From Paracoccus denitrificans (GTDB lineage: Bacteria; Pseudomonadota; Alphaproteobacteria; Rhodobacterales; Rhodobacteraceae): a stretch of 64,000 nt of DNA. Shown in pieces: positions 27,667 to 41,770 of this stretch. The first letter of the stretch is position 1. The number at the start of each line of letters is the position of its first letter. The notes under the pieces were generated by a model, which saw only the letters and a list, made by a program, of their open reading frames with translations, ran no database searches and was not told the DNA's origin. The DNA is taken from positions 1-64,000 of the forward strand of contig NZ_FNEA01000020.1 of assembly GCF_900100045.1 (NCBI RefSeq). Reading direction: 5' to 3'. Made by a program: the position numbers and the translations under genes.

Positions 27667-27674
27667 TCCCGTCG

Positions 27675-27700
27675 CCCGCCCTGCCCGTCCTGCGGGCGGG
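27675..27700. terminator. Hairpin between convergent TonB receptor and araC genes
   Basis: CCCGCCC at 27675-27681 pairs with GGGCGGG at 27694-27700 around a 12-base loop. It sits between two convergent stops and can serve both. Confidence 0.55.
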
Positions 27701-27710
27701 GCGCCGATCC

Positions 27711-28679
27711 CTAGCCGGCAAGCCGGGCCCGGCGCCAGGTCGCCGGCGGTTCGCCGCAGGATTTGCGGAACACCCGCGTCAGATGCGCCTGGTCGGAAAA
27801 GCCGAGCTGCGCGGCGATGTCGGCCAGCCGCAGGTCGGATTCCAGCAGCAGCCGCTGGACCAGGTCGATGCGCTGGCCCAGTTGCCATTGCAGCGGCGTC
27901 GTGCCGGTCGTGTTCTTGAAGACATGCGCGAACCAGCTTTCCGACAGGCCGACGCTCTCTGCCATCTCGGCCACGGTCAGCCGCCGGTCGGGGCGGGTCG
28001 CCAGCCGCGCTTGCAGGCGCTTCATCTGCGCAGGCGTCAGCAGCGCCGCGGGACGTTCGCCGGTCTGCTGCGGCACGTCCAGCAGGGCGCTGAAGATGCT
28101 GCCGACCAGGCTTTCGGCATAGATGCCATGCTTGCGCGGCACCGCCACCTCGTCCACCAGCAGCCGCGCCAGCGCATCGACGGCGACGGCGTCCTGGATC
28201 TCGACGGGGCGGCGCAGGACGCTCAGCGCCTCGGAGCGGCCAAGCGGCGGCGACAGAAAGCGCAGCAGCCGGTCCTGGTGCACATGCAGGTCCAGATGCG
28301 AAAAGACATGCGGCGCGGTGAAGCGGGTCCACATCGGCACGCCGGCCGGCACATAGATCGCCCGTGTCATCGGCCGGCAATGGCGACCGATGCCGTCGTC
28401 GCGGTTCGAGATGCGGATATGCGAGGACACGTCGTTGAAGAAGAAGACGATGCGCGGGTCGGGCGACAGGTAATAGCCCTGGGCGCCGGTCTGGCCCTCG
28501 GCCTCCCAATAGACGCTGACCAGCCCGTCGAGTCCGCGCCACCGGACGGGCATCGTGGGCCGGATGCCCTCGGTATAGCAGGTCATGGAATGGCGATAGC
28601 TCATCGCATGCGGCTCTGGTAAGCCTTCGGGGCCGGAAGGCGTGGATGGGAAGAATACCTTAGGGAAATTCTCAGCCAT
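27711..28679 (-). CDS. AraC family transcriptional regulator
   Basis: A 322-residue regulator from the ATG at 28679, which has AGGACGG about ten bases upstream. The C terminus carries the double HTH of the AraC/XylS family: LTVAEMAESVGLSESWFAHVF and LRLADIAAQLGFSDQAHLTRVFRK. The N-terminal part is cupin-like and binds an effector. AraC proteins such as PchR or YbtA activate siderophore receptor genes when bound to the ferric siderophore; the location next to system B suggests this role. Confidence 0.88.
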   Translation of the reverse strand: MAENFPKVFFPSTPSGPEGLPEPHAMSYRHSMTCYTEGIRPTMPVRWRGLDGLVSVYWEAEGQTGAQGYYLSPDPRIVFFFNDVSSHIRISNRDDGIGRHCRPMTRAIYVPAGVPMWTRFTAPHVFSHLDLHVHQDRLLRFLSPPLGRSEALSVLRRPVEIQDAVAVDALARLLVDEVAVPRKHGIYAESLVGSIFSALLDVPQQTGERPAALLTPAQMKRLQARLATRPDRRLTVAEMAESVGLSESWFAHVFKNTTGTTPLQWQLGQRIDLVQRLLLESDLRLADIAAQLGFSDQAHLTRVFRKSCGEPPATWRRARLAG

Positions 28680-28946
28680 CGCAATCCGTCCTGTCCCGCC
28701 GCGTTCGGATTGGGCATGCCTGTCGCAAATATGCAGCACACCCAATCAGGCCGGGCTGGCCGTCGCAGCGACGAAGCGGCCTGCGCACTCGCCCAGGGTC
28801 ACGAGCTGCCCGCCTTGCAGCGCGAGCCAAGCCCCCCGGACAACAGCCTGCCGGTCGCACTGCCTACCCATCCTCATGGCGACATCATGGCGCGGACAAT
28901 GCGCTCGAACTCGGCCCGAGGCGATGTCTCGGGCCAAGATGCCGGG
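28680..28946. other. Intergenic stretch without a supported gene
   Basis: About 267 bases between the araC start and the end of the lyase gene, both on the minus strand. Only antisense or overlapping short frames are seen, none with a convincing ribosome site. It should contain the araC promoter. Confidence 0.5.
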
Positions 28947-30611
28947 TCATCGTTCCATGAGGATACGGCGCCCGGCCGCGAAATCCTCGGAGTAGATGCG
29001 ATCCTTGTCGACGAAGGGAACGTGCCGGCGATAATCGTCGAGAAGGTTCTTCGTGGCCCTCCCCAATGCCGGCCGCTTGCGCAGGTCGACGGCCTGGGCG
29101 GCATGCAGCAACTGGATCGAGGACATCCAGTAGAGATTGTCGAGGATCCGCCCCAGATTGGCGACGGAAAGCGGCGCGTGGCTGTCCAGATCCTCGATAT
29201 TCCCCGCCATCGCGACCGAGCCGGCCGGGGCCTGCGCACCGATCTGGCGGTTCTCGGCCAGAAGCGCCACGAGCGGCTTCTGGATCGCCCCGAAGGCATG
29301 GCCGTGATTGGTCTCGGCCGCAAGGAAGCGCGGCAGGTGGGTCATCTCGGGATTTTCGAAACGGATCGTCTGCATGGTGATCGCCTGGGACAGGCGCACC
29401 AACGCGGCATTCAACGCCTCGACGCTTGTCGCCACCGGCAGCATCTCGAAGCCCGCGGTCGGATAGATCGCGCCCGCGACCTCGCCCTCGATGAAATAGG
29501 CGGAGACCTGGGCCGAGGTCTTTTCATCCACCGCGCCGACGACGACCCCCGGATTGTCGTCGCTGTGGTTGATCTGAATTTCCAGCACCTTCACCAGGTC
29601 CTGCGTCGCGACCCGGGCGCCGCCCAGCACATAGGCCATGGTGCGGAACGACAGCGGATCCTGCAAGGCGCGCTCATCGGAGGGCGACCACAGATAGCTG
29701 CCCTGCAACGCATCGCGGATCGCCCGTGCGCCGGCGAGGTTTTCCGGAAAGGGGCGGATATCGTTCGTCTCGGACAGGAACGGCGCGACGTTGCCGTTGA
29801 ACCCCTCCAGCGCAAGGGCAAAGACGATGGCTTCCTTGTCCAGATAGGCGTCGACGTCATGGGCCAGCAGGGCAGCATGCCCCGCCGTCAGCGCATTGGT
29901 GCTGAGGATCGACAGGAAGTCCTTGCCGACCGGCTCCAATGGGGCGATCCCCGCATCCGACAATGCCTGCCGGGCAGCCATGCGGTCGCCGTTCACGAAC
30001 ACCTCGCCCTCGCCGATCATGGCCAGGCCGATATGCGAGGCCAGGGTGATGTCCGCCTCGCCCACCGAGCCGCGCGAGGGCACGACCGGCGTGATGCCGC
30101 GCTCAAGGAACTGGCGATACATCTCGGCCACGGCGGGCTGCACGCCCGTCCGCCCTGTCGCGATCTGGTTCAGGCGAATGGCCATCCCCGCCCGCACCGC
30201 CTCGACGGGCATCGGCTCGCCCACGCCCGCGCCGTGCGCGCGCAACGAGGTCAGGTTGAAGGCGCGCGACAGCTGCAAAAGCTCATCGTCCAGCACCCGC
30301 TTGCCGTCCTTGATCGCAAAGACCGGGCGGTCCTTGTTCCAGCCGACGCCGACCGTCAGCCCGTAGACGGCCTTGCCTTGCAGCGCCGCCTCCATCACCA
30401 GGGCGAAGCCCTGGGCGATCTGCGTGTCCGCGCCTTGAGTCAGGACGATCCTGGCGCCGTCGTCCCGCGCGATGCCCGCGACCTGCTCGACCGTCAGGGT
30501 TCGCCCGTCGATGGTCCAATCCTCGGCCCATGCGGCGGAACCGCCAAGCGCGGCCGTCAGGCAAAGGGCGGTCAGGCAGTGGTGGCGGCCGGTTCCGGTT
30601 CGAACGGACAT
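28947..30611 (-). CDS. Exported HAL/PAL-family lyase lacking the MIO triad; candidate ergothionase
   Basis: The 554-residue product has the aromatic amino acid lyase fold: an active-site loop VYGLTVGVG around Tyr83 (YGVNTGFG in histidine ammonia-lyase), GSVG at 181-184, and INHSDDNP. In MIO enzymes GSVG is followed by Ala-Ser-Gly; here it is Glu-Ala-Asp (185-187, bases 30051-30059), so MIO cannot form. Ergothionase, which eliminates trimethylamine from ergothioneine, is a MIO-free member of this family as I recall. A Sec signal (MSVRTGTGRHHCLTALCLTA, cleavage after AWA) predicts a periplasmic enzyme. The start at 30611 follows AAAGGAAA. Neighbours supply the steps expected after thiourocanate. 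Histidine ammonia-lyase is the less likely alternative. Confidence 0.85.
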   Translation of the reverse strand: MSVRTGTGRHHCLTALCLTAALGGSAAWAEDWTIDGRTLTVEQVAGIARDDGARIVLTQGADTQIAQGFALVMEAALQGKAVYGLTVGVGWNKDRPVFAIKDGKRVLDDELLQLSRAFNLTSLRAHGAGVGEPMPVEAVRAGMAIRLNQIATGRTGVQPAVAEMYRQFLERGITPVVPSRGSVGEADITLASHIGLAMIGEGEVFVNGDRMAARQALSDAGIAPLEPVGKDFLSILSTNALTAGHAALLAHDVDAYLDKEAIVFALALEGFNGNVAPFLSETNDIRPFPENLAGARAIRDALQGSYLWSPSDERALQDPLSFRTMAYVLGGARVATQDLVKVLEIQINHSDDNPGVVVGAVDEKTSAQVSAYFIEGEVAGAIYPTAGFEMLPVATSVEALNAALVRLSQAITMQTIRFENPEMTHLPRFLAAETNHGHAFGAIQKPLVALLAENRQIGAQAPAGSVAMAGNIEDLDSHAPLSVANLGRILDNLYWMSSIQLLHAAQAVDLRKRPALGRATKNLLDDYRRHVPFVDKDRIYSEDFAAGRRILMER

Positions 30612-30637
30612 GAGATTTCCTTTCCATGGTTGCCGCA

Positions 30638-31981
30638 TCAAGGATCGGCGGGGGCCGGAACGGCCCCGCGCCCGCAATTCGTCGAATAGGGCTTTGGCAG
30701 CACCAGCACCGCGATCAGCGACGCGGCGGCGGCCGCCATGACGTAGAATGCGGGCGCATGGAAACCGATCCCCGTGCTGCCCAGCCATGTCAGCGTCGCG
30801 GGGGCGAACCCGCCGAAGATCGTCACGGCGGCATTGTAGGCCAGCGACATGCCGGTGGTGCGGACATGGGTCGGAAAGACTTCGGAAAGGGTGGCGGGCG
30901 CCACGCCCACGAAGCCCGAGACCATGATGCAAAAGAGGCTTTGCACGATGACGAGGGTGGTCAGCGTCGGCGATGCCTGAAGCCACGAGATCAACGGATA
31001 GACCGCGACCAGCATCAGCGCCGCCGAGGCTCCCAGCATCAGGCGACGCCCGATCCTGTCCGAGACGGTGCCGGCGCAGACACAGCCCACGGCCAGGAAG
31101 ACGTTGCCGATCAGCGAGGCGGTGAAGGCCTGCGAGGGGGTGAAGCCGAAGGCCCTCTGGACGAAGATCGGCATGTAGATGATCAGCACGTAGACGCAGA
31201 CCGCCCACAGGATCGAAAAGGCGAAGCCCTTGATCAGGTGGCCGAGATAGTCCGAGAAGACCTGCCTGAGCGGCGCGGCGGCGGGTTCGCGCCCGGCGCT
31301 GGCCCGCTCGGCCTGGAAGGCCGGGGTTTCGTCCAGCGTCTTGCGCAGCCACAGGCCGACCGGCGCGATCAGGACACCGATGAAGAAGGGTATGCGCCAG
31401 CCCCAGTCCCCGACCTGCTGCTCGGTCAGGAGCGATGTGACGGCGAAGGCCACAAGCGCGCCCATGATGTTCGAGATCGCCATGCTCGCCTGCAACCACG
31501 AGGCGTATTTGCCCTTCTTGTCGGCCGGCGCATGCTCGACCAGAAATGCCGCCGCGCCGCCGATCTCGCCACCCGCCGAAAAGCCCTGCAGAACGCGGCC
31601 GGCAAGGATCATCAGCGGCGCGCCGATGCCCATCGCGGCATAGGTCGGCGCAATTGCGATGAGCAGCGTCCCCGCCGCCATGATCATGATCGTCAGAAAC
31701 AGCGCCGCCTTGCGGCCGGCCTTGTCGCCATAGACCCCGATCACGACGGCCCCCAGCGGGCGGATCACGAAGCCGAGACCGAAGGCCAGGAAGGCCTTGA
31801 CCAGTTCGACGGTATCGTCGCCGCCCGGAAAGAAGTTCTGCGCGATATAGATCGCGAACAGTGCATAGACGGTGAAGTCGTACCATTCGAGCGCGTTGCC
31901 GATCGAGGCCGCGGCGACCGCGCGCCCCGGCGATGATCGTTTGGCGGGCACGCTCCGCCAGTCCTGCCGTGTGGTTTCCAT
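30638..31981 (-). CDS. MFS transporter, metabolite:H+ symporter family (ProP-like)
   Basis: A 447-residue, 12-helix carrier of the MHS subfamily. Signs are NALEWYDFTVYALFAIYIA at the start, the loop motif GDKAGRKAALF, the repeated GRVLQGFSAGGEIGGAAAFLVE, and DRIGRRLML in the second half. The family imports betaines, proline, shikimate and other acids. Twenty-six bases upstream of the lyase gene, it probably imports ergothioneine, a betaine, or, if the lyase acts in the periplasm, thiourocanate. Confidence 0.9.
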   Translation of the reverse strand: METTRQDWRSVPAKRSSPGRAVAAASIGNALEWYDFTVYALFAIYIAQNFFPGGDDTVELVKAFLAFGLGFVIRPLGAVVIGVYGDKAGRKAALFLTIMIMAAGTLLIAIAPTYAAMGIGAPLMILAGRVLQGFSAGGEIGGAAAFLVEHAPADKKGKYASWLQASMAISNIMGALVAFAVTSLLTEQQVGDWGWRIPFFIGVLIAPVGLWLRKTLDETPAFQAERASAGREPAAAPLRQVFSDYLGHLIKGFAFSILWAVCVYVLIIYMPIFVQRAFGFTPSQAFTASLIGNVFLAVGCVCAGTVSDRIGRRLMLGASAALMLVAVYPLISWLQASPTLTTLVIVQSLFCIMVSGFVGVAPATLSEVFPTHVRTTGMSLAYNAAVTIFGGFAPATLTWLGSTGIGFHAPAFYVMAAAAASLIAVLVLPKPYSTNCGRGAVPAPADP

Positions 31982-32093
31982 CTTTCCTCCCCTTTGCCCG
32001 TCGGTAACCGCGGGCGCTGGTTGATTGCTGTTTGGCTTCTTCCGGGCGCAGGCGGACCCTTGGCGGGTTCTGGCTGCCGCGCCCGGCAGAGGA
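31982..32093 (-). other. Gap between urocanase-like and MFS genes with small hairpins
   Basis: A 112-base gap, the widest inside the cluster. It contains nested complementarity (GCCCG at 31996-32000 with CGGGC at 32011-32015, enclosing CGGTAACCG) and a short TGCCG/CGGCA stem near 32075. It may separate the enzyme operon from the transporter-lyase pair by partial termination or hold a second promoter. Confidence 0.35.
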
Positions 32094-33758
32094 TCAGAGT
32101 TTCAGGTGGTTGATGCCCTTGCGGGCGACTTCGTCCTGCGCCTCGGGATAGCCCGCATCGGCGTAGCGGATGACGCCAAGCCCGGTGTCGTTGTCGATCG
32201 CCTGCTCCAGCCGCACGTCCGCCGCCGCGGTGCCGTCCGCGATGATCGTGACGCCCGCCGAGGTCATGTAGCCCGCATAGCCCCCGCCCCCCGAATGGAT
32301 CGCGACCAGGTCGGCGCGCGAGGCGCAAAGCAGCATCGCATCCAGCAGCGGCCAGTCGGCGATAGCGTCCGAGCCGTCGCGCATGTTCTCCGTCATGATG
32401 TTCGGATGCGCCATGCCCGCCGAGTCGAGGTGATCGCGCGAGAAGGCGACCGGCCCCTTCAGCTCTCCCGCGGCGACGAGTTCGTTGACCCGCCGGGCCA
32501 GGGCGCTGCGCTCGCCATGGCCAAGCCATGCGATGCGGGCGGGCAGCCCCTCGAAGGGGACGTTCTCGCGCGCTAGCCGGATCCAGTTGGTGACGATCCT
32601 GTTGTCCGGGAACATTTCCAGCACCAGATCGTCGATGCGCGCGATATCGGCCGGATCCCCCGACAGGGCCATCCAGCGGAACGGCCCGATGGCGCGGCAG
32701 AAGAGCGGACGCAGATAGGCCTCGGTAAAGACGGGGATGTCGAAGGCATCCGCGACGCCGCCGGCCTGCGCCTGGGTGCGGATCAGGTTGCCGTTGTCAA
32801 AGACCTCGGCCCCCGCGCGCTGGAAGTGCAGCATCGCCCTCACATGCTGCGCAATCGACGCCCGCCCCGCCGGGATCAGTTCCGAGGGATTCTGACTGCG
32901 CAACCGGCGCACCCGCTCCAGATCGTAGCCGACCGGGACATAGCCATAGACCAGATCGTGGGCCGAGGTCTGGTCGGTCACGATATCCGGCACGATCCCG
33001 CGCGCAGCGATCCTAGGATAGATCTCGGCCGCGTTGCCGACAAGGCCGACGGACAGCGCCTGCCCCTTTGCCCGCGCCTGCTCGATCCGCGCCAGCGCAC
33101 CGTCAAGATCGGGGGCGATTTCGTCGAGATAGCCGATTTCCCGGCGCTTGCGGGCCCGTTCTGGATCGATTTCGACGCACAGGATCGCGGCGCCCGCCAT
33201 GCGTCCGGCCAAGGGCTGCGCTCCGCCCATGCCGCCAAGGCCCGCCGTCAGGACGAAGCGCCCCTCCAGCGTGCCGCCGAAGCGACGCTCGGCGATGCGC
33301 ATGAAGATTTCATAGGTGCCCTGGATGACCCCTTGCGAGCCGATATACTGCCATGCTCCGGCGGTCAGCCCGCCCCAGCAGACCAGGCCCTTGCGTTCCA
33401 GGTCGTAGAAGGTCTCAGCATTGGCCCATTGCCCGACGATATTGCAGTTGGCCATGATCACCTTTGGCGCCTCGGCCGAGGTCTTCATCAACCCGACCGG
33501 CTTGCCGGACTGGATGACCAGCGTCTGGTCCTCGTCCATGACGGTCAGCGCGCGGACGATGGCGTCATGGGCGGCCTTGTCGCGCGCAGCCTTGCCGAGT
33601 GCTGCGTAAACGACAAGGTTATCTGGATCCTCGCCTACCGCCAGCACGTTTTCCATCAGCCGCAGCAGCGCCTCTTGCCGCCAGCCCTTGGCGCGCAGTT
33701 CGGATCCCGAAGGGATCGGGAAGCCGGGATTGCGTGGATTGTCCCTGGGCATGCTCAA
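32094..33758 (-). CDS. Urocanase-family hydratase; candidate thiourocanate hydratase
   Basis: A 554-residue HutU homologue, the usual family length. The NAD+-binding block TAGLGGMGGAQPLAGRMAGA is intact, as are RDHLD, MRDGSDAIADWPLL and RYADAGY. Where urocanases usually read GSVASPNRETE after RDHLD, this protein reads SAGMAHPNIMTEN, so the substrate-contact region differs. No imidazolonepropionase gene follows. Hydration of thiourocanate to 3-(5-oxo-2-thioxoimidazolidin-4-yl)propionate is therefore more likely than ordinary histidine degradation. Its start overlaps the DUF917 stop by four bases. Confidence 0.85.
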   Translation of the reverse strand: MSMPRDNPRNPGFPIPSGSELRAKGWRQEALLRLMENVLAVGEDPDNLVVYAALGKAARDKAAHDAIVRALTVMDEDQTLVIQSGKPVGLMKTSAEAPKVIMANCNIVGQWANAETFYDLERKGLVCWGGLTAGAWQYIGSQGVIQGTYEIFMRIAERRFGGTLEGRFVLTAGLGGMGGAQPLAGRMAGAAILCVEIDPERARKRREIGYLDEIAPDLDGALARIEQARAKGQALSVGLVGNAAEIYPRIAARGIVPDIVTDQTSAHDLVYGYVPVGYDLERVRRLRSQNPSELIPAGRASIAQHVRAMLHFQRAGAEVFDNGNLIRTQAQAGGVADAFDIPVFTEAYLRPLFCRAIGPFRWMALSGDPADIARIDDLVLEMFPDNRIVTNWIRLARENVPFEGLPARIAWLGHGERSALARRVNELVAAGELKGPVAFSRDHLDSAGMAHPNIMTENMRDGSDAIADWPLLDAMLLCASRADLVAIHSGGGGYAGYMTSAGVTIIADGTAAADVRLEQAIDNDTGLGVIRYADAGYPEAQDEVARKGINHLKL

Positions 33759-34846
33759 ACCGCCAACGCATAATCGGTCAGGTTGATGCCCATGACCTTT
33801 TCGGGGTGAACATAGATCGCGGGGTCCATCAGCCCCGCGCCGACCGGGATCAGGGCCTTGGCGACATGCAGCAGATGAACCTTCATCCCCACCCTGAGTT
33901 CGCCGACCGACAGCGGCTCCATCTCCTGCGACAGGGTGGTGATGACATCCGGAAAGGTCGCAAGGCGGCTGCCGTCGGCGGCGCTGACCGCCATGTATTC
34001 GTTCATCACGTGAAGCGTCAGCGCCTTGTCGCCCGCGCCCAGCGTGACGGTGCCGACATCGAAGGCCTCGTTCGTATAGACGACATCCATGGCGGTGATC
34101 TCGCTCTCGGTCAGGATGGTGCCGCCGGTCGTCGCGATGATCGCGTCAAGCACGGCCGCGGTGCCCTTCGGTTCGGCTGCGATGATGGCGTGCCCCAGTT
34201 CCAGCGCCCTGGAGATGCCGCCAAGGGCCGCGTTTCGGGCTACATAGCCGGCGCGGACCGGATTGCGCGCCGAAGCGATGAAGCCGCCCGACATATCGGA
34301 TGCCGTGCGCAGGATGGGCGAGACGCGGCCGGTCGCCCCGCGCGCGACCAGTTCGATATAGCGGTTCTGCTCGCGATTGCCGCCGACCGCGGTCTGGATG
34401 GATTCGTCGGGCTTGCCGGCCATGCCGATCGCGCCCATGTCGCCGGTCGGATGCGCCCGCATGTCGCCGACCGCATCCAGCACCTTGCAGCCAAGAATGG
34501 CCGAGGGAAGCCAGGCGTTCAGCGTCGAGGACTTGCCGTTCTGCCCGATCATCAGCGCCGCGACCTTCGCGCCAAGCGCATCCTGCAAAAGCTGCACGGC
34601 CTTGACGTAGTCCACGCCGCGCATCTCCCATGGCGTTGTCGAGGCGGGCGCGCCGATGGCCGCGGCCGTGGCGACCCAGTCGTCCTCATGCAACTCGTCG
34701 ACCGAGACGAGTTCGGGCGCGCCGGCATTGACCGCCGCATAGCCCAGCATGCGCCCGTGATGAACCCAACCGCCGCCGCCCGCCGCATAAACCGCACCGC
34801 CGCGCACCGCGGATTCGACATCCTTTTCCGTCAGAACTCTGGCCAT
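33755..34846 (-). CDS. DUF917 family protein; candidate thiohydantoin-propionate desulfhydrase
   Basis: A 363-residue protein of the DUF917 family, recognised from GGAVYAAGGGGWVHHGRMLGY, the ALMIGQNGKSSTLNAWLPSAILGCKVLDAVGDMRAHPTGDMGA core (shown in parts: GQNGKSSTLNAW, DAVGDMRAHPTG) and the C-terminal PEKVMGI segment. The ATG at 34846 has GGGAGGG in front. In an ergothioneine-degrading Burkholderia the step that replaces C=S by C=O in the thiohydantoin was, to my recollection, assigned to a DUF917 protein. Its place between the M20 hydrolase and the urocanase homologue fits. The chemistry is inferred, not read from motifs. Confidence 0.8.
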   Translation of the reverse strand: MARVLTEKDVESAVRGGAVYAAGGGGWVHHGRMLGYAAVNAGAPELVSVDELHEDDWVATAAAIGAPASTTPWEMRGVDYVKAVQLLQDALGAKVAALMIGQNGKSSTLNAWLPSAILGCKVLDAVGDMRAHPTGDMGAIGMAGKPDESIQTAVGGNREQNRYIELVARGATGRVSPILRTASDMSGGFIASARNPVRAGYVARNAALGGISRALELGHAIIAAEPKGTAAVLDAIIATTGGTILTESEITAMDVVYTNEAFDVGTVTLGAGDKALTLHVMNEYMAVSAADGSRLATFPDVITTLSQEMEPLSVGELRVGMKVHLLHVAKALIPVGAGLMDPAIYVHPEKVMGINLTDYALAV

Positions 34847-34847
34847 T

Positions 34848-36089
34848 TCAGCCCTCCCGTTTCCTGTCCAGTTCCATGACCGTGTTCGCCAGCACCTCGG
34901 CCGCCAGGGCGAGGTCGGCTGTCTCGGCCCATTCCTCGGGGCAATGCGAGCGGCCCTCGCGGCATGGCACGAACACCATCGCCGAGGGGCAAAGCCGCGC
35001 CATGAAGGCCGCATCGTGGCCCGCACCCGACACCATCCTGCGACAGGCCGCGCCCAGCCCGTCGGCGGCTTCGGCCAGTTTCCGCTGCAAGCCGTCATCC
35101 ATGCCCACGCCGGGATTGTCCGAAATCAGCCGCGTTTCGACGGTGATGCCGGGCGCGGCTTCAAGACCCGTCAACCAGGTCACGAAGGCCTCTTTGTCCC
35201 TGGCGCGCTCGGCGCGGATATCGACAAGCATGCGGACACGGGCGGGCACGACATTGGCAGCATTCGGAGATATCTCGAATTCGCCGACCGTGGCGGTGAA
35301 ATGCGCGGGACCGGCCGACAGCTCCGTCGCGCGGGCCTCGATCTGGGTCACGATCCGGGCCGAGGCGGCAAGCGCATCGGCGCGCAGCCCCATGGGGGTG
35401 GTGCCGGCATGGTCCGGGCGGCCAGAGATCACGATCTCGACACGGGTGATGCCGACGATGGCCGTGACGATGCCAAGCCCGATCCTTTCGGCCTCCAGCA
35501 CCGGGCCCTGTTCGATATGCAGCTCCAGAAAGGCCTTCAGATCGTCGCGCAGCGGCCCGTGAAGGCTTTCGGGAACACCGCCCACATCCGCCATTGCCCG
35601 CGCAAGATCACGCCCGTCGCTGGTGCGTCCCAGCCAATCCTGCGGCAGCACCCCGGCCATTGCCCGCGAACCGATGCAAGAGACGCCGAAGACCGAAACC
35701 TCTTCGGCCAGGAAATCGACCACGGCAAGATCGTGACGCAGGACGGCACCGCGGCGGGCAAGGATGCGCGCGACCTCCAGCGCCACGACGACGCCCGCAA
35801 TCCCGTCGAAACGCCCGCCATCCGGCACGGTATCCGAATGGGAGCCCAGCATGATCGTCCCCGCCCCCGGCCGGGTGCCCTTGCGCAGGCCGATCAGGTT
35901 GCCGCCCGCATCGGTCGAGACCTGCAACCCCCCTGCGACGAAGCGCCGGCGCAGATGGTCGCGCCCCTCGTCGAAACGGGGCGAGAAGGCGCGGCGCGTC
36001 CATGGGCGCCCGGGATCGGTGATCCGGGCCAGCGCATCGATATCCCTGCCGATTGCCTCGGCCGAGGCGTCGAGATTGCGCCGCATCAC
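34848..36089 (-). CDS. M20-family N-carbamoyl-L-amino acid hydrolase; candidate N-carbamoyl-glutamate hydrolase
   Basis: A 413-residue dinuclear metal amidohydrolase of the AllC/HyuC group. Metal-site motifs are GSHSDTVPDGGRFDG (82-96), EEVSVFGVSCIGSR (129-142), ELHIEQGPVLE and, near the C terminus, CREGRSHCPEE. The dimerisation-domain substrate residues are in GRPDHAGTTPMGLRADAL and the late GAGHDAAFMA. These enzymes remove CO2 and NH3 from N-carbamoyl or ureido acids. In this cluster the product would be glutamate. It overlaps the upstream amidohydrolase gene by four bases and ends one base before the DUF917 start. Confidence 0.9.
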   Translation of the reverse strand: MMRRNLDASAEAIGRDIDALARITDPGRPWTRRAFSPRFDEGRDHLRRRFVAGGLQVSTDAGGNLIGLRKGTRPGAGTIMLGSHSDTVPDGGRFDGIAGVVVALEVARILARRGAVLRHDLAVVDFLAEEVSVFGVSCIGSRAMAGVLPQDWLGRTSDGRDLARAMADVGGVPESLHGPLRDDLKAFLELHIEQGPVLEAERIGLGIVTAIVGITRVEIVISGRPDHAGTTPMGLRADALAASARIVTQIEARATELSAGPAHFTATVGEFEISPNAANVVPARVRMLVDIRAERARDKEAFVTWLTGLEAAPGITVETRLISDNPGVGMDDGLQRKLAEAADGLGAACRRMVSGAGHDAAFMARLCPSAMVFVPCREGRSHCPEEWAETADLALAAEVLANTVMELDRKREG

Positions 36090-37468
36090 AGCAACCCTTC
36101 GCGCAGGCCGAGCGTTTCGGGCGGGCGCACGAAGATGCCGGTCCCCGGCACGGCAAGGACCTCGGTCCCGTCAAAGACCATCTCGCCCCGCCGCCAGGTG
36201 GCCGCGACCGTCCAGGGCAGTTCCATACCGTGATAGGGTGACCAGCCGGCGATGGAATGGCGGCTGCTGGCGGCGTCATAGACCGCGGGCCGGTCGACCA
36301 GCACCGTCACGTCGGCATCGCGCCCGGCCCGAAGCCCGCCCTTGCGATGATCCAGGCGGAAATGCCGGGCCGGATTTTCGGCCATCAGCCGCGCCGCCCA
36401 GACCAGCGGCACGCCGCGCGCCATCGCGCCCTTGACGAAAAGCGGCACCATCACCTCGAGCCCCGGCACGCCGGAGGCGTTCCCAAGCATATCGGGATCG
36501 GTCTTGCGATCCTCGCTCCAGCTCACATGATCGGTTGACACCATCGACACGCGGCCCTCGGCCAGGTGCCTCCAGATCGCCTCGACTTCGCGGCGGGGAC
36601 GGACGGGCGGGTTGATCTTGGCCTTGCCGCCAAGCCGCGCGACATCGTTTTCCTCATCCAGGACAAGGTAATGGATGCAGCATTCCACGGTCGAGCGATG
36701 GCCGGCGCCGCGATACATCGCCGCGATCTCGTAGCCACGGCCGACCGAGCAATGGACGACATGGGCCGGACAGCCGGTTTCGGCGCCGGTTTCGTAGATC
36801 TGCAGCATTGCCAGCGTCTCGGCCAGTTCCGGCCGCGACAGGCCATGCGCGCGCCAGTCGGTGATGCCCGCGGCCTCGACCTCGGCGATCGCCGCGCGGA
36901 CATAGGCATCGTCCTCGTTGTGAACGCCCGCCGCCAATCCGGTCTTCACGACCTCGGCAAAGCAGGCACGCAACAGCGCCGGCGGGATGCGCGGGAACCG
37001 CAGAGGATCGGTTCCGAAGGTCGAGAACTTGTAGGCGCAAACGCCCGCCGCCGCCTGTTCGGCGATACGGGCCGGGCCTTCCTCGGGGCGGATGGTGCCG
37101 TAAAGCGCGACATCGACGCGCGCATCGCTGTCGATCATCGCGACCTTGCGGCCCACGGCCTCGGCCGAGCAGACCAGATTGCCCTCGTCATAGGGCATGT
37201 CGACGATGGTAGTGACGCCGCCAGCCGCAGCAGCGCGGGTCGAGGCGGCAAAACCCTCGGCCCCCCTTTGCGACAGCGAATGCACCTGCGCATCGACCGC
37301 GCCGGGCAGGATGATGCCGTTTGCGAAATCATGCCGCTCGCGCCCCGCGGGTGCCGCGCCTTCGCCGACCAGCGCCGTCTTGCCATCGCGAATGGCAACG
37401 TAGCCCCGGGCGATCTCGCGATCCGTCAGGATGATCCGCCCCGTCAAAACCGTATCGAAATCTGCCAT
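36086..37468 (-). CDS. Dihydroorotase/allantoinase-type amidohydrolase; candidate hydantoin-propionate hydrolase
   Basis: A 460-residue cyclic amidohydrolase. The barrel metal-site residues are visible as Lys147 (AYKFSTFG, the carboxylated lysine), His183 (GVHNED), His239 (HVVHCSV) and Asp313 (STDHVSW). The first His of the usual H-x-H pair is Gln61 (PGAVDAQVHS; codon CAG at 37286-37288), an unusual substitution. Hydantoinases and allantoinases open five-membered ureide rings, so ring opening of hydantoin-5-propionate to N-carbamoyl-glutamate fits the cluster. It is the first enzyme gene downstream of the regulator. Confidence 0.88.
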   Translation of the reverse strand: MADFDTVLTGRIILTDREIARGYVAIRDGKTALVGEGAAPAGRERHDFANGIILPGAVDAQVHSLSQRGAEGFAASTRAAAAGGVTTIVDMPYDEGNLVCSAEAVGRKVAMIDSDARVDVALYGTIRPEEGPARIAEQAAAGVCAYKFSTFGTDPLRFPRIPPALLRACFAEVVKTGLAAGVHNEDDAYVRAAIAEVEAAGITDWRAHGLSRPELAETLAMLQIYETGAETGCPAHVVHCSVGRGYEIAAMYRGAGHRSTVECCIHYLVLDEENDVARLGGKAKINPPVRPRREVEAIWRHLAEGRVSMVSTDHVSWSEDRKTDPDMLGNASGVPGLEVMVPLFVKGAMARGVPLVWAARLMAENPARHFRLDHRKGGLRAGRDADVTVLVDRPAVYDAASSRHSIAGWSPYHGMELPWTVAATWRRGEMVFDGTEVLAVPGTGIFVRPPETLGLREGLL

Positions 37469-37497
37469 GCCTTCCTCCAGTCAGGTTTCGACTACGA

Positions 37498-37530
37498 GAT
37501 TTGGCGGGATTTCGGGTATATCCCAAAATC
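37498..37530. promoter_or_regulatory. Imperfect inverted repeat before the ergothioneine-type operon
   Basis: GATTTGGCGGGA at 37498-37509 is nearly mirrored by TCCCAAAATC at 37521-37530. It lies in the 153-base gap between the LysR-like gene and the amidohydrolase gene, where an operator and promoter for the enzyme operon would be expected. Confidence 0.35.
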
Positions 37531-37621
37531 AGGACACCTTATGGCGATTTCATGGACATGCGCCGGCTCGCGCTCCCGCCGAACCACATGCAACATTGCT
37601 CAAAAGGGGCAAGGGACCGGA

Positions 37622-38905
37622 TCAGAGGCCCGAAAGTATTTCCTGCGCAAAGCGCTCGGCCTTCGGCGACCGCTTCCAGGTCAGTTGCAGGAACTGGTCG
37701 AATTCGGACGGCAGATCAAGGGCGACGCATTCGGAAAGCGTTTTGCCAACGGAGCGGGGCAAGAGCGACCGATACTCGCCGCCCGCCACCATGTTGACGA
37801 TGACCGGCAGGGAATCGACCTCGACAACCGGAATGCGCGAGCGCCAGTCGGGCGTCGCGTATCTGTTCAGAAAGCTTTCGGCGCGCTGGCGCAGGCCGCT
37901 GCGCCGGGACTGAAGCACGAAGGGCTTGCGGGCCAGGATCTCCGTCAGTTCCTCTTGCTCCGGCCGCTGCCGCGGAAGGCCGCGACCGACGATGGCGACG
38001 GGGGTGCGCTCTAGCTCGTGCTGCCGATAGGCCGGGTCGTGCAGGTCGGTATCGACAAGCACCACGTCGAAGCGGCCGGTATCAAGGCCGGTCAGCAGAT
38101 CTTCGGCAATGGCCGAGGCGACGGTGATCGTGACGCCCTTCTGCATGTAGAGGCGAGAGGTGATCGTCGCCACCAGATGGGCAAGATTGCCACGTGCGGT
38201 TGCGGGAATGATCGATCCCAGGGCGAATCTGCGCGAAGCCATCGTATAGACCGGCGTCGCTTCACCCGTGAACGCCCGCCAGGCAAGCTCGAACCGTTCG
38301 ATCAGTCGCACCACCCGCTCACCTTCGGGCGTAAGGGAGATTCCCTTGCTGCCCCGGTGCAGCAGGACCTGGCCATGGTTGCTTTCGACCTGCGCGATCT
38401 GGCGAGTCAGTTGCGGCTGACCGACGCCCATTTCGGAGGCTGCGCGGCGGATGGAACCAAGTCGCGTGACAGCCGCCAGCCGGAACAGCGCAGCCAGGGA
38501 GGCCGGACATTCCGGCACCTCGTCCGGCCCAACCTGATGAATAGCACGGGCGATATCCGCCATCTCGCTGATCGCCGGTGCAAGCCGGGCCGCTTGGACA
38601 GTGGGGACAAGTCCGGTCTGGCTGCGCCGGACGAGCTTCAGCGACAGGCTATCCTCGACCCGGGTCAGAGCGGCCGAAATCGTCGAGACCGGCACCCGCG
38701 CCGCCCGCGAAGCGGCGCGCACGCCGCCGTGACGCAGGGCGAGATCCGTCAGAATCAGCGTGGAGGTCCGCAAGGTTTCCCCGTGTGTTCGATAGCTGAC
38801 ATATGCTTGACGTGTGTTCGCCCTGCAAGGCGTCGCGGCACTGCTCTCCGTCGTCGGAACCTCACGAGCCACGTCCGTCGCGTCAGGGGCTTCCAGTGGT
38901 CGCAT
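37622..38905 (-). CDS. LysR-type regulator with two tandem HTH domains
   Basis: Up to 427 residues. Two LysR-type HTH modules can be read: the first at about 46-106 (LALRHGGVRAASRAARVPVSTISAALTRVEDSLSLKLVRR), the second at 136-200 (AALFRLAAVTRLGSIRRAASEMGVGQPQLTRQIAQVESN; ISLTPEGERVV). A LysR substrate-binding domain follows (about 225-420). Quoted segments are read in pieces: GGVRAASRAARVPVSTIS and GSIRRAASEMGVGQPQLT. A second HTH is not standard. It probably senses an intermediate of the downstream pathway. The start is uncertain: ATG 38905 lacks a ribosome site; TTG 38773 (LRTSTLIL) after GGGGAAA is an alternative. Confidence 0.82.
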   Translation of the reverse strand: MRPLEAPDATDVAREVPTTESSAATPCRANTRQAYVSYRTHGETLRTSTLILTDLALRHGGVRAASRAARVPVSTISAALTRVEDSLSLKLVRRSQTGLVPTVQAARLAPAISEMADIARAIHQVGPDEVPECPASLAALFRLAAVTRLGSIRRAASEMGVGQPQLTRQIAQVESNHGQVLLHRGSKGISLTPEGERVVRLIERFELAWRAFTGEATPVYTMASRRFALGSIIPATARGNLAHLVATITSRLYMQKGVTITVASAIAEDLLTGLDTGRFDVVLVDTDLHDPAYRQHELERTPVAIVGRGLPRQRPEQEELTEILARKPFVLQSRRSGLRQRAESFLNRYATPDWRSRIPVVEVDSLPVIVNMVAGGEYRSLLPRSVGKTLSECVALDLPSEFDQFLQLTWKRSPKAERFAQEILSGL

Positions 38906-39023: not shown

Positions 39024-39494
39024 ATGACCCACGATCTTTCCCTCCGCTCCCGCTTCGGCATCAGATTCTCCCTGCTTGCCCGCCGCTGGCGCCGGAGTAT
39101 CGAGGCACAGCTTGCGCAAGCCGGGCTGACCGATGCGACCTGGGTGCCGCTGGTTCATCTTCAGGAGACCGGCGGCGGGATCACCCAAAAGGATCTTGCC
39201 GCGCTTGTCGGGGTCGATGGTTCAAGCCTCGTGCGCGTGCTGGACATCCTGGCCCGCGAGGGGCTGATCGAGCGCCGCCGCGACGAAGCTGACGGCCGGG
39301 CCCGGCTGATCCACCTGACACCGGCCGGCAAGGTGCGGGTCGGCGAGATACGGAAGGAACTGGGGCGGGCCGAAGAGGCGATCCTGGTCGATCTTTCGGA
39401 TACGGAGATCGGCGACATGCTGCGGCATTTCGAGACGATCGAGCGGCGCATGATCGCCCTGGATGGCAAGGCCGACCCGGGAGGCAGGCCATGA
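39024..39494 (+). CDS. MarR family regulator of a FUSC-type exporter
   Basis: A 156-residue MarR protein with HTH (ITQKDLAALVGVDGSSLVRVLDIL) and wing (ERRRDEADGRARLIHLT) followed by a C-terminal dimerisation helix. MarR genes paired with aromatic-acid efflux genes (as with FUSC/AaeB proteins) respond to phenolic acids. Its stop overlaps the exporter start by four bases. It carries its own AT-rich promoter with a dyad. Confidence 0.87.
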   Translation: MTHDLSLRSRFGIRFSLLARRWRRSIEAQLAQAGLTDATWVPLVHLQETGGGITQKDLAALVGVDGSSLVRVLDILAREGLIERRRDEADGRARLIHLTPAGKVRVGEIRKELGRAEEAILVDLSDTEIGDMLRHFETIERRMIALDGKADPGGRP

Positions 39495-40618
39495 TGGCCG
39501 GAAAGGCCGTCGCGCTGCGCCGCCGCGATGCCCTGCGCCACCTGCTGCATCCGCGCCAACTGACGGACAGCATGGCGCTGTCGAAGCAACCTTCCCTGCG
39601 AAACTCGGTGCTGGCCGGGGCGCAGGCCGCAATCACCGCGGCCATCGTGCTGCCGCTCGTCCACCTGTCGCCCTGGCCGCATCTCATCGGCTTTGCCTCG
39701 CTCGGGGCGCTCGTGGCCCTGTTCGGCCGCTTCGCACCGGCGCAAGGCCGCAAGCGGATCGTGTTCCTCTGCGCGCTCTGGCAGGTGCTGGCGGTCCTTG
39801 CCATGTCCGGCCTTGCCTGGCTGGGCGCCCCGGTCGTCATGCAACTGGTCCTGCTGGCGCTTTCCTGCGGAGTCTTTCTGTTCGTCTGCACGACCGGCGG
39901 GTTCGGCGCGCCCGGCGCGCTGATCTTCGTCTTTGCGGCCGGTGCCTCGATGTCCGCGGACCTGAGTCTCGAGCAATTGGTCGCGCGCGTATCGGCGACG
40001 GCAGCGGCGGCGGCGCTCGCCTGGGCGATCTGCGCCGCGACCGAGGGCTTGCGCCACCTGCCCACCGCGATGCGCCCGTTTCCGGCAGAACCGCAGCACC
40101 CGCTGAACCATCGCCTGTCGGCAGCGTCGCGCAGCGCTGCCGGAGCCGGAATCGCGATCCTTGCGAGCCATGCCTTTGGCGCGAACCACCCGGCCTGGGC
40201 CGCGATGGGCACGCTGGCGGTCATGCAGGGGGCGCATCTTCACATCACGATGAGCCGGGCGATGCAGCGCATGGCCGGGACGGTCCTTGGGGCCATGCTG
40301 GCCTGGACCCTTTTGCTGCAAGAGCCCTCGGTCTGGGCCATGATCGCCGTGCTGGCGATGCTTCAGCTGCTGACCGAAGTCGTGATCGGCATCAACTATG
40401 CCTTCGGCCAGGTGTTCGTCACCCCGATGGCGCTGCTGATGACCCATCTCGGCACCCCGCATGGCGCCGGGCCGGACATCGCGCCAGAACGCGTGTTCGA
40501 CACGCTTCTTGGTGCCGTGATCGGCATCGCGATGTCGGTCCTGCTGTCGACGGTCGACGACCGCCGGCACCTGGCGGTGCTGAGGAATGGTGCCAGGATG
40601 GGCGGATCGAAACCATAA
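39491..40618 (+). CDS. FUSC family inner-membrane protein (aromatic acid efflux type)
   Basis: A 375-residue membrane protein with two groups of hydrophobic helices (about 40-165 and 205-350). It matches the FUSC/AaeB-like fold in a short form without the large cytosolic insert. The segment AAWAAMG-type (NHPAWAAMGTLAVMQ) before helix 2 of the second half is characteristic. Such proteins export aromatic carboxylates or toxic phenolics, which suits a genome rich in aromatic catabolism. It is translationally coupled to the MarR gene. Confidence 0.85.
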   Translation: MMAGKAVALRRRDALRHLLHPRQLTDSMALSKQPSLRNSVLAGAQAAITAAIVLPLVHLSPWPHLIGFASLGALVALFGRFAPAQGRKRIVFLCALWQVLAVLAMSGLAWLGAPVVMQLVLLALSCGVFLFVCTTGGFGAPGALIFVFAAGASMSADLSLEQLVARVSATAAAAALAWAICAATEGLRHLPTAMRPFPAEPQHPLNHRLSAASRSAAGAGIAILASHAFGANHPAWAAMGTLAVMQGAHLHITMSRAMQRMAGTVLGAMLAWTLLLQEPSVWAMIAVLAMLQLLTEVVIGINYAFGQVFVTPMALLMTHLGTPHGAGPDIAPERVFDTLLGAVIGIAMSVLLSTVDDRRHLAVLRNGARMGGSKP

Positions 40619-40700
40619 CCGGATGACATGCGCCCCAAATGTTGCGGGCAAGGGGCAAGTCTCGGCGGCATCGGCCCGCCCCCGCCCATGTCGTTCGGGC

Positions 40701-40727
40701 GGGGAGCAGGCTGCGCTCTCCCCTTTT
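40701..40727 (+). terminator. Intrinsic terminator after the FUSC gene
   Basis: GGGGAG at 40701-40706 pairs with CTCCCC at 40718-40723 and is followed by TTTT. An overlapping alternative stem, CCCCGCCC (40680-40687) with GGGCGGGG (40697-40704), could serve the convergent pirin gene. Confidence 0.6.
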
Positions 40728-40781
40728 GCTACGTTCCCATTCCGGGGCCGATGCCGCGTGCCGTGTCCGAAGCGCGTCCCT

Positions 40782-41726
40782 TCACCTCAACCGATCGGGC
40801 AAGGGAATGAACTCGTCCTCGTCGCCCGGCGGCAACCGGAAGCGGCCGTGCTCCCAGTCGCCCTGCGCCCATGCCTCCTTGGCGGCATCGATCCGTTCCT
40901 GCGACGACGCGACGAAGTTCCAGGAAATGTAGCGCGGCCCGTTCATGGTCTCGCCGCCCAGAACCATCAGCCGGGCGCCGGCCTCGCCGGCCTTCAGGCT
41001 GATGCGGTCGCCGGGGCGGAACACCATCATCCGGCCGGCCTCGAAGGTTTCGCCGGCCACCAGGATGCTGCCCTCGACCACATAGACGCCGCGATCCTCG
41101 TGATCGTCGGGCAGCGGCAGGCTGGCGCCGGCGGCAAGGACCACATCGGCATAGAAGGTCTCGGTAAAGGTCTTGACCGGCGCGCGCTCGCCCCAGGCCG
41201 AACCCAGGATCAGCCGCACCTGCTTGCCCCCGTCCTCGAGGAAGGGCAGCGCGTCGCGGCCGTGATGCTCGAAACCCGCGGCGCGGTCCTCCTCGCCCTC
41301 CGGCAGCGCGACCCAGGTCTGGATGCCGAAGAGCGAGCCGGGCCGCTTGCGCATCTCCTCGCTGGTGCGCTCGGAATGGGTGACGCCGCTGCCGGCGATC
41401 ATCCAGTTGACCTCGCCGGGATAGACCATCTGGTCGGCGCCGGTGCTGTCGCGATGATGGAACTCGCCCTGGTAGAGATAGGTCACCGTCGCCAGCCCGA
41501 TATGCGGGTGCGGGCGCACGTCGATGCCGCCGCCGGTCAGGAATTCGGCCGGGCCCATCTGGTCGAAGAAGATGAAGGGGCCGACCATCTGCCGGCGCGG
41601 CGCGGGAAGCGCGCGGCGCACCTCGAAGCCGCCCAGGTCGCGGGCGCGCGGAATGATCAGCGTCTCGATGGATTCCAGGCCCTTGCGGTCGGGGCAATCC
41701 GGGTTCTGCGTGGGGTTCCAGCTCAT
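40782..41726 (-). CDS. Pirin family protein
   Basis: A 314-residue double-cupin protein. The N-terminal metal site matches pirins: HPHIGLATVTYLYQGEFHHRDS (read as HPHIGLATV and EFHHRDS) plus the later SGVTHSERT. Bacterial pirins can have quercetin 2,4-dioxygenase activity or act as stress-responsive regulators. It begins the row of minus-strand detoxification genes with a DoxX gene 44 bases upstream. Confidence 0.93.
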   Translation of the reverse strand: MSWNPTQNPDCPDRKGLESIETLIIPRARDLGGFEVRRALPAPRRQMVGPFIFFDQMGPAEFLTGGGIDVRPHPHIGLATVTYLYQGEFHHRDSTGADQMVYPGEVNWMIAGSGVTHSERTSEEMRKRPGSLFGIQTWVALPEGEEDRAAGFEHHGRDALPFLEDGGKQVRLILGSAWGERAPVKTFTETFYADVVLAAGASLPLPDDHEDRGVYVVEGSILVAGETFEAGRMMVFRPGDRISLKAGEAGARLMVLGGETMNGPRYISWNFVASSQERIDAAKEAWAQGDWEHGRFRLPPGDEDEFIPLPDRLR

Positions 41727-41770
41727 GTCGGGCTCCTTTCGTGGGTCCGGGGATGCGAAGGCTTACGGTA

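What the first reader, a model, noticed from the sequence alone, without database searches (positions are those of the whole stretch)
28947..38905. Complete candidate ergothioneine-to-glutamate catabolic operon
Seen: seven minus-strand genes encoding a MIO-less HAL-family lyase, a betaine-type MFS carrier, a urocanase homologue, a DUF917 protein, an M20 N-carbamoyl-amino-acid hydrolase, a hydantoinase/allantoinase-type amidohydrolase and a regulator. Most junctions overlap or nearly touch. No hutI, hutF or hutG is present. Known: the ergothioneine route described in Burkholderia goes through thiourocanate, a thiohydantoin propionate, hydantoin propionate and N-carbamoyl-glutamate to glutamate, releasing trimethylamine and sulfide. 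Each step has one matching gene here. Inferred: this host can use ergothioneine as carbon, nitrogen and possibly methylamine source.
Basis: partly seen in the sequence, partly recalled or inferred. Interest (0 to 1): 0.88.

Follow-up and report, generated by a model that had tools for sequence, protein, structure and literature searches.

The report
Ergothioneine-breakdown operon with exported first enzyme
Seven neighbouring genes in Paracoccus denitrificans look like a complete set for breaking the antioxidant ergothioneine down to glutamate, and the first enzyme carries an export signal, which suggests that the break-down starts outside the cell's inner membrane and that the carrier takes up the half-digested product.

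Summary
In detail: seven minus-strand genes at 28947-38905, tightly packed. Four enzymes pass curated NCBIfam equivalog cut-offs for ergothioneine utilisation, and the hydratase and desulfurase fail their S-methyl variants. The lyase lacks the MIO triad; its nearest solved structure is Treponema ergothionase by sequence and by fold. The genome also has a separate full hut cluster. The pathway is known, so the core is a new member in P. denitrificans.

Two corrections. The lyase has a Sec-type signal peptide, shared by its Pseudomonadota relatives, and the carrier is not specifically betaine-type. In surveyed loci with the desulfurase, exported lyases go with this MFS (6 of 7) or TRAP-like genes (1 of 7); a second, signal-less MIO-less lyase lineage does not (0 of 10) and in 3 of 10 sits with a betaine ABC importer. 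My reading: ergothioneine is split in the periplasm, trimethylamine is shed, thiourocanate is imported. No trimethylamine monooxygenase or dehydrogenase was found, which weakens the methylamine-source idea. Nothing biochemical was tested.

The parts
37622..38905 (-). LysR-type regulator with two helix-turn-helix matches (427 aa)
   Evidence: Pfam HTH_1 in two stretches plus LysR_substrate; homologues at 29-36% identity in 14 of the 24 other surveyed loci that carry the desulfurase
36086..37468 (-). ErtD, hydantoin-5-propionate amidohydrolase
   Evidence: NCBIfam NF058538 758 bits, cut-off 600; second ErtD model NF058539 375.7 of 650; allantoinase 263.7 of 357.85
34848..36089 (-). ErtE, N-carbamyl-L-glutamate amidohydrolase (M20)
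   Evidence: NF058540 594.3 bits, cut-off 520; also NF009531 'Zn-dependent hydrolase' 709.6 of 486 and TIGR01879 329.6 of 204
33755..34846 (-). thiohydantoin desulfurase (DUF917, Pfam S-Me-THD)
   Evidence: NF058529 552.4 bits, cut-off 440; S-methyl version NF058532 271.9 of 450, fails
32094..33758 (-). thiourocanate hydratase (urocanase family)
   Evidence: NF058530 1045.7 bits, cut-off 930; S-methyl version NF058531 751.2 of 880, fails; hutU TIGR01228 698.6 of 375, passes; nearest solved structure 7ned (labelled urocanate hydratase), 780 bits against 628 for the next
30638..31981 (-). MFS carrier, metabolite:H+ symporter family; proposed thiourocanate importer
   Evidence: TIGR00883 378.4 of 443.45, TcuC model 355 of 445, ProP 271.5 of 544: none of the three passed
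28947..30611 (-). MIO-less HAL-fold lyase, proposed periplasmic ergothionase
   Evidence: PF00221 406.5 bits; best solved structure 6s7j ergothionase 279 bits, next 149.8; model pTM 0.85, top fold match 6s7j
30525..30611 (-). Sec-type signal peptide of the lyase, residues 1-29, predicted cut after AWA
   Evidence: read in the sequence; heuristic; residues 1-28 under pLDDT 50 while the folded body begins at about residue 30
30045..30071 (-). GSVGEADIT, residues 181-189, in place of the MIO-forming G-S-V-G-A-S-G of true HAL
   Evidence: alignments; the host's own HutH has GSVGASGDL
30330..30350 (-). GVGWNKD, residues 88-94, identical in Treponema ergothionase; the host's HutH has GFGKLAS
   Evidence: alignments

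Best explanation
This is an ergothioneine (EGT) catabolic operon of the known five-step kind with an exported first step. EGT that enters the periplasm is split there by the MIO-less lyase into trimethylamine, which is shed, and thiourocanate. The MFS proton symporter carries thiourocanate, an acid, into the cytoplasm. There thiourocanate hydratase makes the thiohydantoin propionate, the DUF917 enzyme removes sulfur as sulfide to give hydantoin-5-propionate, ErtD opens the ring and ErtE removes the carbamoyl group to give glutamate, ammonia and CO2. The LysR-type protein probably senses EGT or an intermediate. Shown by sequence: gene content and order, family assignments, signal peptide. Inferred: substrates, location, direction and cargo of transport, regulation; the step chemistry is recalled and follows the family names.
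For: Four enzymes above curated equivalog cut-offs for these steps; hydratase and desulfurase below those of the S-methyl route. The lyase lacks the MIO triad and shares GVGWNKD, GE[A/G]DIT and QDPLSFR with Treponema ergothionase, its best match in sequence and in fold (TM 0.90 on the target, Z 40.0). Separate full hut cluster in the genome. No EgtD found, so the host probably scavenges EGT. A signal peptide was scored in 40 of 47 lyase rows of this lineage, against 0 of 9 in the other MIO-less lineage, 0 of 5 of other kinds and 3 of 35 true HALs, these three with a start far upstream of the domain. Among 25 loci with the desulfurase, the operon's MFS type goes with the exported lyase in 6 of 7, with the signal-less lyase in 0 of 10, and is absent from the 8 loci without a MIO-less lyase; the seventh exported lyase has TRAP-like genes, and OsmF-type betaine-binding proteins, all above their cut-off, were seen in 3 signal-less loci only. 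In 30 of 30 Shewanella loci the exported lyase lies between a flavoprotein, in the tested copy nearest to urocanate reductase, and a small c-type cytochrome; a twin-arginine pattern was found in 28 of 30. This fits thiourocanate being made in the periplasm. Burkholderia arboris is a more distant example of the same plan (MFS 67%, exported lyase 41%; hydratase, desulfurase and ErtD above their cut-offs).
Against: No enzyme, carrier or location was assayed. The signal-peptide call rests on a home-made rule; SignalP was not available. Seven of 47 lineage rows failed it: three by threshold (L007, L010, L011), two because the matching frame lacks the N-terminus (L082, L039), two Bacillota proteins with no extension (L037, L038). 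The MFS/lyase association is not independent: five of the six MFS cases are close relatives; with these collapsed (the signal-less side left uncollapsed) it is 2 of 3 against 0 of 10, p = 0.04. Seven of the 10 signal-less loci have no betaine ABC importer in the operon, so the contrast is partial. The TRAP genes of L006 are in broken frames and below their cut-offs. Exported lyases 70% and 41% identical also sit in other contexts, such as Paracoccus saliphilus beside a full hut cluster and a sulfate-exporter-type protein, so the lyase alone does not fix the substrate. The MFS could equally carry intact EGT if some lyase stays in the cytoplasm.
Confidence: 0.72

Rival explanations
1. Same ergothioneine pathway, all in the cytoplasm: the signal-like N-terminus is not used, the MFS imports ergothioneine itself and the lyase acts inside.
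For: The betaine carrier model ProP matches the MFS at 271.5 bits, below its cut-off of 544. The crystallised Treponema enzyme has no comparable N-terminal extension (alignment).
Against: N-terminus with basic start, hydrophobic core and A-X-A-like site, conserved in type though not in letters across Paracoccus, Agrobacterium, Photobacterium, Shewanella, Sinorhizobium, Burkholderia and Paraburkholderia; MFS nearer TcuC than ProP; carrier type differs between exported and signal-less lyase operons.
Confidence: 0.2
2. The operon serves a relative of ergothioneine: S-methyl-ergothioneine or ergothioneine sulfonate.
For: Close lyases lie near an ornithine-cyclodeaminase-type protein and a sulfate-exporter-type protein in P. 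saliphilus (there beside a full hut cluster) and in Polaromonas JS666 (YeiH family; no hut genes in the stretch), which fits a desulfonating route; an ergothioneine sulfonate pathway is in print (title seen in the reference list of PMC13405746; paper not held).
Against: The S-methyl models of both hydratase and desulfurase are not passed; a thiohydantoin desulfurase would have no place in a route that loses sulfur earlier (inference); hutI, hutF and hutG are absent from this operon.
Confidence: 0.06
3. Paralogous histidine or other hydantoin utilisation genes with mis-specific models.
For: The urocanase also passes the hutU model (698.6 of 375), and the M20 enzyme scores higher on a general Zn-hydrolase model (709.6 of 486) than on ErtE.
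Against: Complete separate hut cluster in the same genome whose HutU scores 950 on hutU and only 668.8 of 930 on thiourocanate hydratase; lyase far below hutH (238.9 of 539.15) and without the MIO triad.
Confidence: 0.02

Closest known systems
Five-step bacterial ergothioneine catabolism (Burkholderia sp. HME13, recalled; Beliaeva et al. 2021, title only, seen in the reference list of PMC9732360; not held) and the NCBIfam ergothioneine-utilisation models (NF058529, NF058530, NF058538, NF058540)
   Same: Each of the four steps after the lyase has one gene above the curated cut-off
   Different: Here the lyase carries a signal peptide and the operon has a metabolite:H+ MFS carrier; whether the published systems share this could not be read (papers not held)
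Ergothionase of Treponema denticola (PDB 6s7j, 6s7q)
   Same: HAL fold without MIO triad, GVGWNKD and GEGDIT motifs, best sequence and fold match
   Different: 33-34% identity; the crystallised chain has no comparable N-terminal extension
Signal-less MIO-less lyase (GSIGC[A/G]D) operons of other Alphaproteobacteria (L111, L112, L102)
   Same: Same hydratase, desulfurase, ErtD and ErtE families
   Different: Lyase of another lineage (27-28% identity to the window's for the three aligned, L094, L102, L097), no signal peptide seen, with OsmF-type betaine ABC importer in these three
Histidine utilisation (hut)
   Same: Fold families of lyase and urocanase
   Different: No MIO triad; no hutI, hutF or hutG in the operon; separate hut cluster in the genome

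Membership tests
ergothioneine catabolic operon | thiourocanate hydratase (NF058530) | tested here: met
   1045.7 bits, cut-off 930; host HutU 668.8 as control
ergothioneine catabolic operon | thiohydantoin desulfurase (NF058529) | tested here: met
   552.4 bits, cut-off 440
ergothioneine catabolic operon | hydantoin-5-propionate amidohydrolase ErtD (NF058538) | tested here: met
   758 bits, cut-off 600
ergothioneine catabolic operon | N-carbamyl-L-glutamate amidohydrolase ErtE (NF058540) | tested here: met
   594.3 bits, cut-off 520; a general Zn-hydrolase model scores higher, 709.6
ergothioneine catabolic operon | growth on, and induction by, ergothioneine | not testable with these tools
   needs cultures
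ergothionase | HAL fold without MIO-forming Ala-Ser-Gly | tested here: met
   GSVGEADIT in place of GSVGASGDL; fold match 6s7j first
ergothionase | nearer to solved ergothionase than to any solved ammonia-lyase | tested here: met
   279 against 149.8 bits; Foldseek 5.6e-32 against 2.7e-25
ergothionase | trimethylamine elimination from ergothioneine | not testable with these tools
   no assay
histidine ammonia-lyase (hutH) | MIO triad and TIGR01225 cut-off | tested here: not met
   no ASG; 238.9 of 539.15 bits
S-methyl-ergothioneine route | S-methyl thiourocanate hydratase and S-methyl thiohydantoin desulfurase cut-offs | tested here: not met
   751.2 of 880 and 271.9 of 450
ergothioneine sulfonate route | lyase acting on the sulfonate | not testable with these tools
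   no such model among the lyase's NCBIfam matches; gene context differs from L077 and L081
betaine MFS carrier (ProP) | NF007927 cut-off | tested here: not met
   271.5 of 544 bits
exported (periplasmic) enzyme | N-terminal signal peptide | tested here: met
   own heuristic and by eye; low pLDDT 1-28; SignalP not run
exported (periplasmic) enzyme | found in the periplasm | not testable with these tools
   needs fractionation or reporter fusions

The most novel reading that the evidence does not exclude
Bacterial ergothioneine breakdown comes in two topologies built on one set of four core enzymes: an exported MIO-less lyase that cleaves ergothioneine in the periplasm, sheds trimethylamine there and feeds thiourocanate to a carboxylate carrier (MFS or TRAP), and a second, separately descended cytoplasmic MIO-less lyase that in some cases follows a betaine ABC importer. 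The exported lyase was also coupled to a periplasmic urocanate-reductase-like flavoprotein in Shewanella, which would make ergothioneine a source of respiratory electron acceptor.
Probability: 0.55. Interest if true: 0.7.

Novelty: new variant of a known kind. Interest (0 to 1): 0.5.

Why it matters
Ergothioneine is a diet-derived antioxidant whose microbial loss and release of trimethylamine are under debate. A 2026 survey that searched with the Burkholderia enzyme found only HAL/PAL/TAL-like similarities and judged ergothionase restricted to few genera, while allowing for divergent homologues (PMC13405746, passages). The motif, signal-peptide and neighbour rules found here separate candidate ergothionases from histidine ammonia-lyases and show two lineages. 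If the first step is periplasmic, trimethylamine and thiourocanate are released outside the cytoplasm, so cross-feeding becomes likely and the carrier to look for is an acid carrier, not a betaine carrier. Paracoccus denitrificans is a laboratory organism (recalled), so the idea can be tested directly.

Tried and rejected
Histidine pathway: rejected by scores, motif and the separate hut cluster. S-methyl route: models not passed. Betaine-type carrier: ProP model not passed; a PDB search with the MFS gave only weak matches, best 35 bits to a phosphate transporter. Trimethylamine use: MauB found, Tmm and trimethylamine dehydrogenase not found (of the five OYE-type places, the three with frames near 700 aa were scanned, two of them also against PDB); other demethylases were not sought. 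Broad lyase search: 1 of 398 phylum genomes at E <= 1e-70, the host itself; 5 of 125 Paracoccus genomes at 1e-60, the host included and one a partial match. Promoter and terminator scans: 2 promoter-like sites (shuffles 1.5) and 2 terminator-like sites (shuffles 5.0), no more than chance. Composition: no step in GC at the operon. Carriers beside signal-less lyases: three multi-helix proteins of L106 and L107 gave no NCBIfam match at 1e-20. VIA-align lists only HAL-type lyases above Z 28 and more distant folds below Z 15. Papers: Zhou 2025, Maurer 2019, Muramatsu 2013, Feng 2025, Beliaeva 2021 and Yan 2022 are not held; 'ergothionase' with 'periplasm' gave one paper, where the two words are unrelated. 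So the claim that the exported lyase is undescribed is limited to the listings.
Full report
What was checked. The 10,159-base stretch is 100% identical to the 1.73-Mb replicon of Paracoccus denitrificans HAMBI_2443, and the window's genome (5.19 Mb, 95 contigs) fits that species.

Enzyme identities. NCBIfam release 20 holds dedicated equivalogs for this pathway. The hydratase (1045.7 bits, cut-off 930), the DUF917 desulfurase (552.4, 440), ErtD (758, 600) and ErtE (594.3, 520) all pass. The S-methyl versions of hydratase and desulfurase do not (751.2 of 880; 271.9 of 450). Against this, the hydratase also passes hutU (698.6 of 375), and the M20 enzyme scores higher on a general Zn-hydrolase model (709.6 of 486). 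A built-in control is the host's own histidine cluster on contig C80: hutF, hutI, hutH, hutG and hutU pass their models, and its HutU scores only 668.8 of 930 on the thiourocanate-hydratase model. Five of 385 genomes drawn from the class, the host included, pass that model. For the desulfurase model, 2 of 292 genomes of the order and 6 of 398 of the phylum pass, the host included in each.

The lyase. It belongs to the aromatic-amino-acid-lyase family (406.5 bits) but is far below hutH (238.9 of 539.15). The MIO-forming triad is replaced: GSVGEADIT instead of GSVGASGDL. Its best solved relative is Treponema ergothionase 6s7j, 279 bits against 149.8 for the next, with shared GVGWNKD, GE-DIT and QDPLSFR stretches. 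A model built on 15 sequences (mean pLDDT 83.0, pTM 0.85) has 6s7j as first match by Foldseek (5.6e-32; next family 2.7e-25) and by VIA-align (Z 40.0, rmsd 2.6, 485 aligned; next Z 38.7). The fold is shared with HALs, so it is the ranking, not the fold, that speaks for ergothionase. NCBIfam gave no ergothionase hit for it. The second lyase lineage (L094) also has 6s7j as best PDB match, by less: 162.3 against 136.8 bits.

The signal peptide. The protein begins with a basic stretch, a hydrophobic core and an AWA cut site 29 residues in. In the model residues 1-28 are under pLDDT 50, and the fold starts at about residue 30. A home-made rule found such a peptide in 40 of 47 rows of this lyase lineage. 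The seven misses are L007, L010 and L011 (missed by threshold), L082 and L039 (matching frame lacks the N-terminus) and L037 and L038 (Geosporobacter, Bacillota, no extension). It found none in 9 rows of the second MIO-less lineage (one with a cut N-terminus), none in 5 rows of other kinds, and 3 in 35 true HALs, these with starts far upstream of the domain, probably over-extended frames. A tree of 28 lyases puts the exported lineage (with the two Geosporobacter rows), the signal-less GSIGC[A/G]D lineage and the true HALs in three groups: 84/93 support for the first, 100/100 for the others, with some long branches, the root unknown and one MIO-less row (L048) in no group.

Neighbours. I compared 25 loci that hold the desulfurase gene; one of them, L076, is the window's own operon in the named record. 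Seven carry the exported lyase, ten the signal-less MIO-less lyase (two of them read in full), and eight show no MIO-less lyase nearby (one of these has a true HAL beside it). The window's MFS type is found in 6 of 7, 0 of 10 and 0 of 8. The seventh exported lyase (Photobacterium, L006) has TRAP-like genes in broken frames, below their cut-offs, and also a second, broken MIO-less lyase without signal. An OsmF-type betaine-binding protein was seen only in three signal-less loci (L092/L111, L093, L102), all three above the model's cut-off. Fisher's test gives p = 0.0006 for 6 of 7 against 0 of 10, but five of the six are close relatives; with these collapsed, 2 of 3 against 0 of 10, it is 0.04. 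In six other signal-less loci I saw no carrier inside the operon, and L110 has an MFS whose best match is the efflux pump NepI, below its cut-off. A Neisseriaceae contig (L013), which ends before any desulfurase, also has the exported lyase, an MFS at 53% identity and a hydratase piece. Burkholderia arboris has the same content (MFS 67%, exported lyase 41%) with ErtD- and ErtE-like genes divergent; its hydratase (1050), desulfurase (608.3) and ErtD (693.6) pass their models.

Other settings of the exported lyase. All 30 Shewanella loci examined have the gene between a flavoprotein (76-100% identical to that of L020, whose best solved relative is urocanate reductase, 249.4 bits; a twin-arginine pattern in 28 of 30) and a small cytochrome c; in one (L039) the lyase frame is broken. 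In P. saliphilus a 70% identical lyase adjoins a full hut cluster, and there and in Polaromonas JS666 an ornithine-cyclodeaminase-type protein and a sulfate-exporter-type protein are near; this may be an ergothioneine sulfonate route. So the lyase lineage is a module used with different downstream chemistry, and the substrate of the window's operon is fixed by its four other enzymes rather than by the lyase.

Mechanism. Shown: genes, families, signal peptide, conserved neighbourhoods. Inferred: periplasmic cleavage, shedding of trimethylamine, thiourocanate import by the MFS, then hydration, desulfuration, ring opening and decarbamoylation to glutamate. That no EgtD was found fits a scavenger. 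Methylamine dehydrogenase is encoded, but I found no Tmm-type monooxygenase and no clear trimethylamine dehydrogenase, so use of the trimethylamine is unsupported.

Literature. PMC13405746 (passages) lists ergothionase in few organisms and cites the Treponema structure, the Burkholderia work, the sulfonate pathway and two gut pathways. PMC9732360 (passages) describes an ergothioneine ABC transporter and cites the five-step reconstitution. PMC12771579 (passages) mentions a xanthine-oxidase homologue in the gut pathway. PMC4621440 (passages) mentions an ergothionase homologue in Methylobacterium. The primary enzyme papers that I looked up are not held, so I cannot say whether a signal peptide or periplasmic location has been reported there.

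Noticed in passing
L020:8330-11997 and 29 further Shewanella loci: Urocanate-reductase-like flavoprotein (twin-arginine pattern in 28 of 30), exported MIO-less lyase and small cytochrome c in a row in 30 of 30 Shewanella loci: a candidate periplasmic ergothioneine respiration cassette.
   Followed up: partly
L077:2122-13611; L081:10679-16554: Exported lyases (70% and 41% identical) with an ornithine-cyclodeaminase-type protein and a sulfate-exporter-type protein, in L077 also a full hut cluster: possible ergothioneine sulfonate route.
   Followed up: partly
L098, L100, L101, L103, L104, L105, L109: Desulfurase-bearing operons without a MIO-less lyase nearby, several beside TRAP or amino-acid-type ABC carriers: possible thiourocanate scavengers; a lyase elsewhere in these genomes was not sought.
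   Followed up: no
L037:7717-11533: Geosporobacter: signal-less ergothionase-like lyase directly after a xanthine-dehydrogenase-type molybdenum subunit (XdhA model 609.7 of 780); the gut pathway is said to use a xanthine-oxidase homologue (PMC12771579, passages).
   Followed up: partly
L006:15702-17289: Photobacterium: a second, frame-broken MIO-less lyase (GSIGVAD) without signal peptide after the hydratase pieces.
   Followed up: no
window 25567-28745: TonB-dependent siderophore receptor (TIGR01783 316.8 bits, cut-off 223.5) and AraC-type regulator next to the operon; no link to it seen.
   Followed up: no
window 39024-42163: MarR-type regulator followed by frames at 39491-40618, 40782-41726 and 41771-42163 that look by eye like FUSC-type, pirin and DoxX proteins (not scanned).
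   Followed up: no
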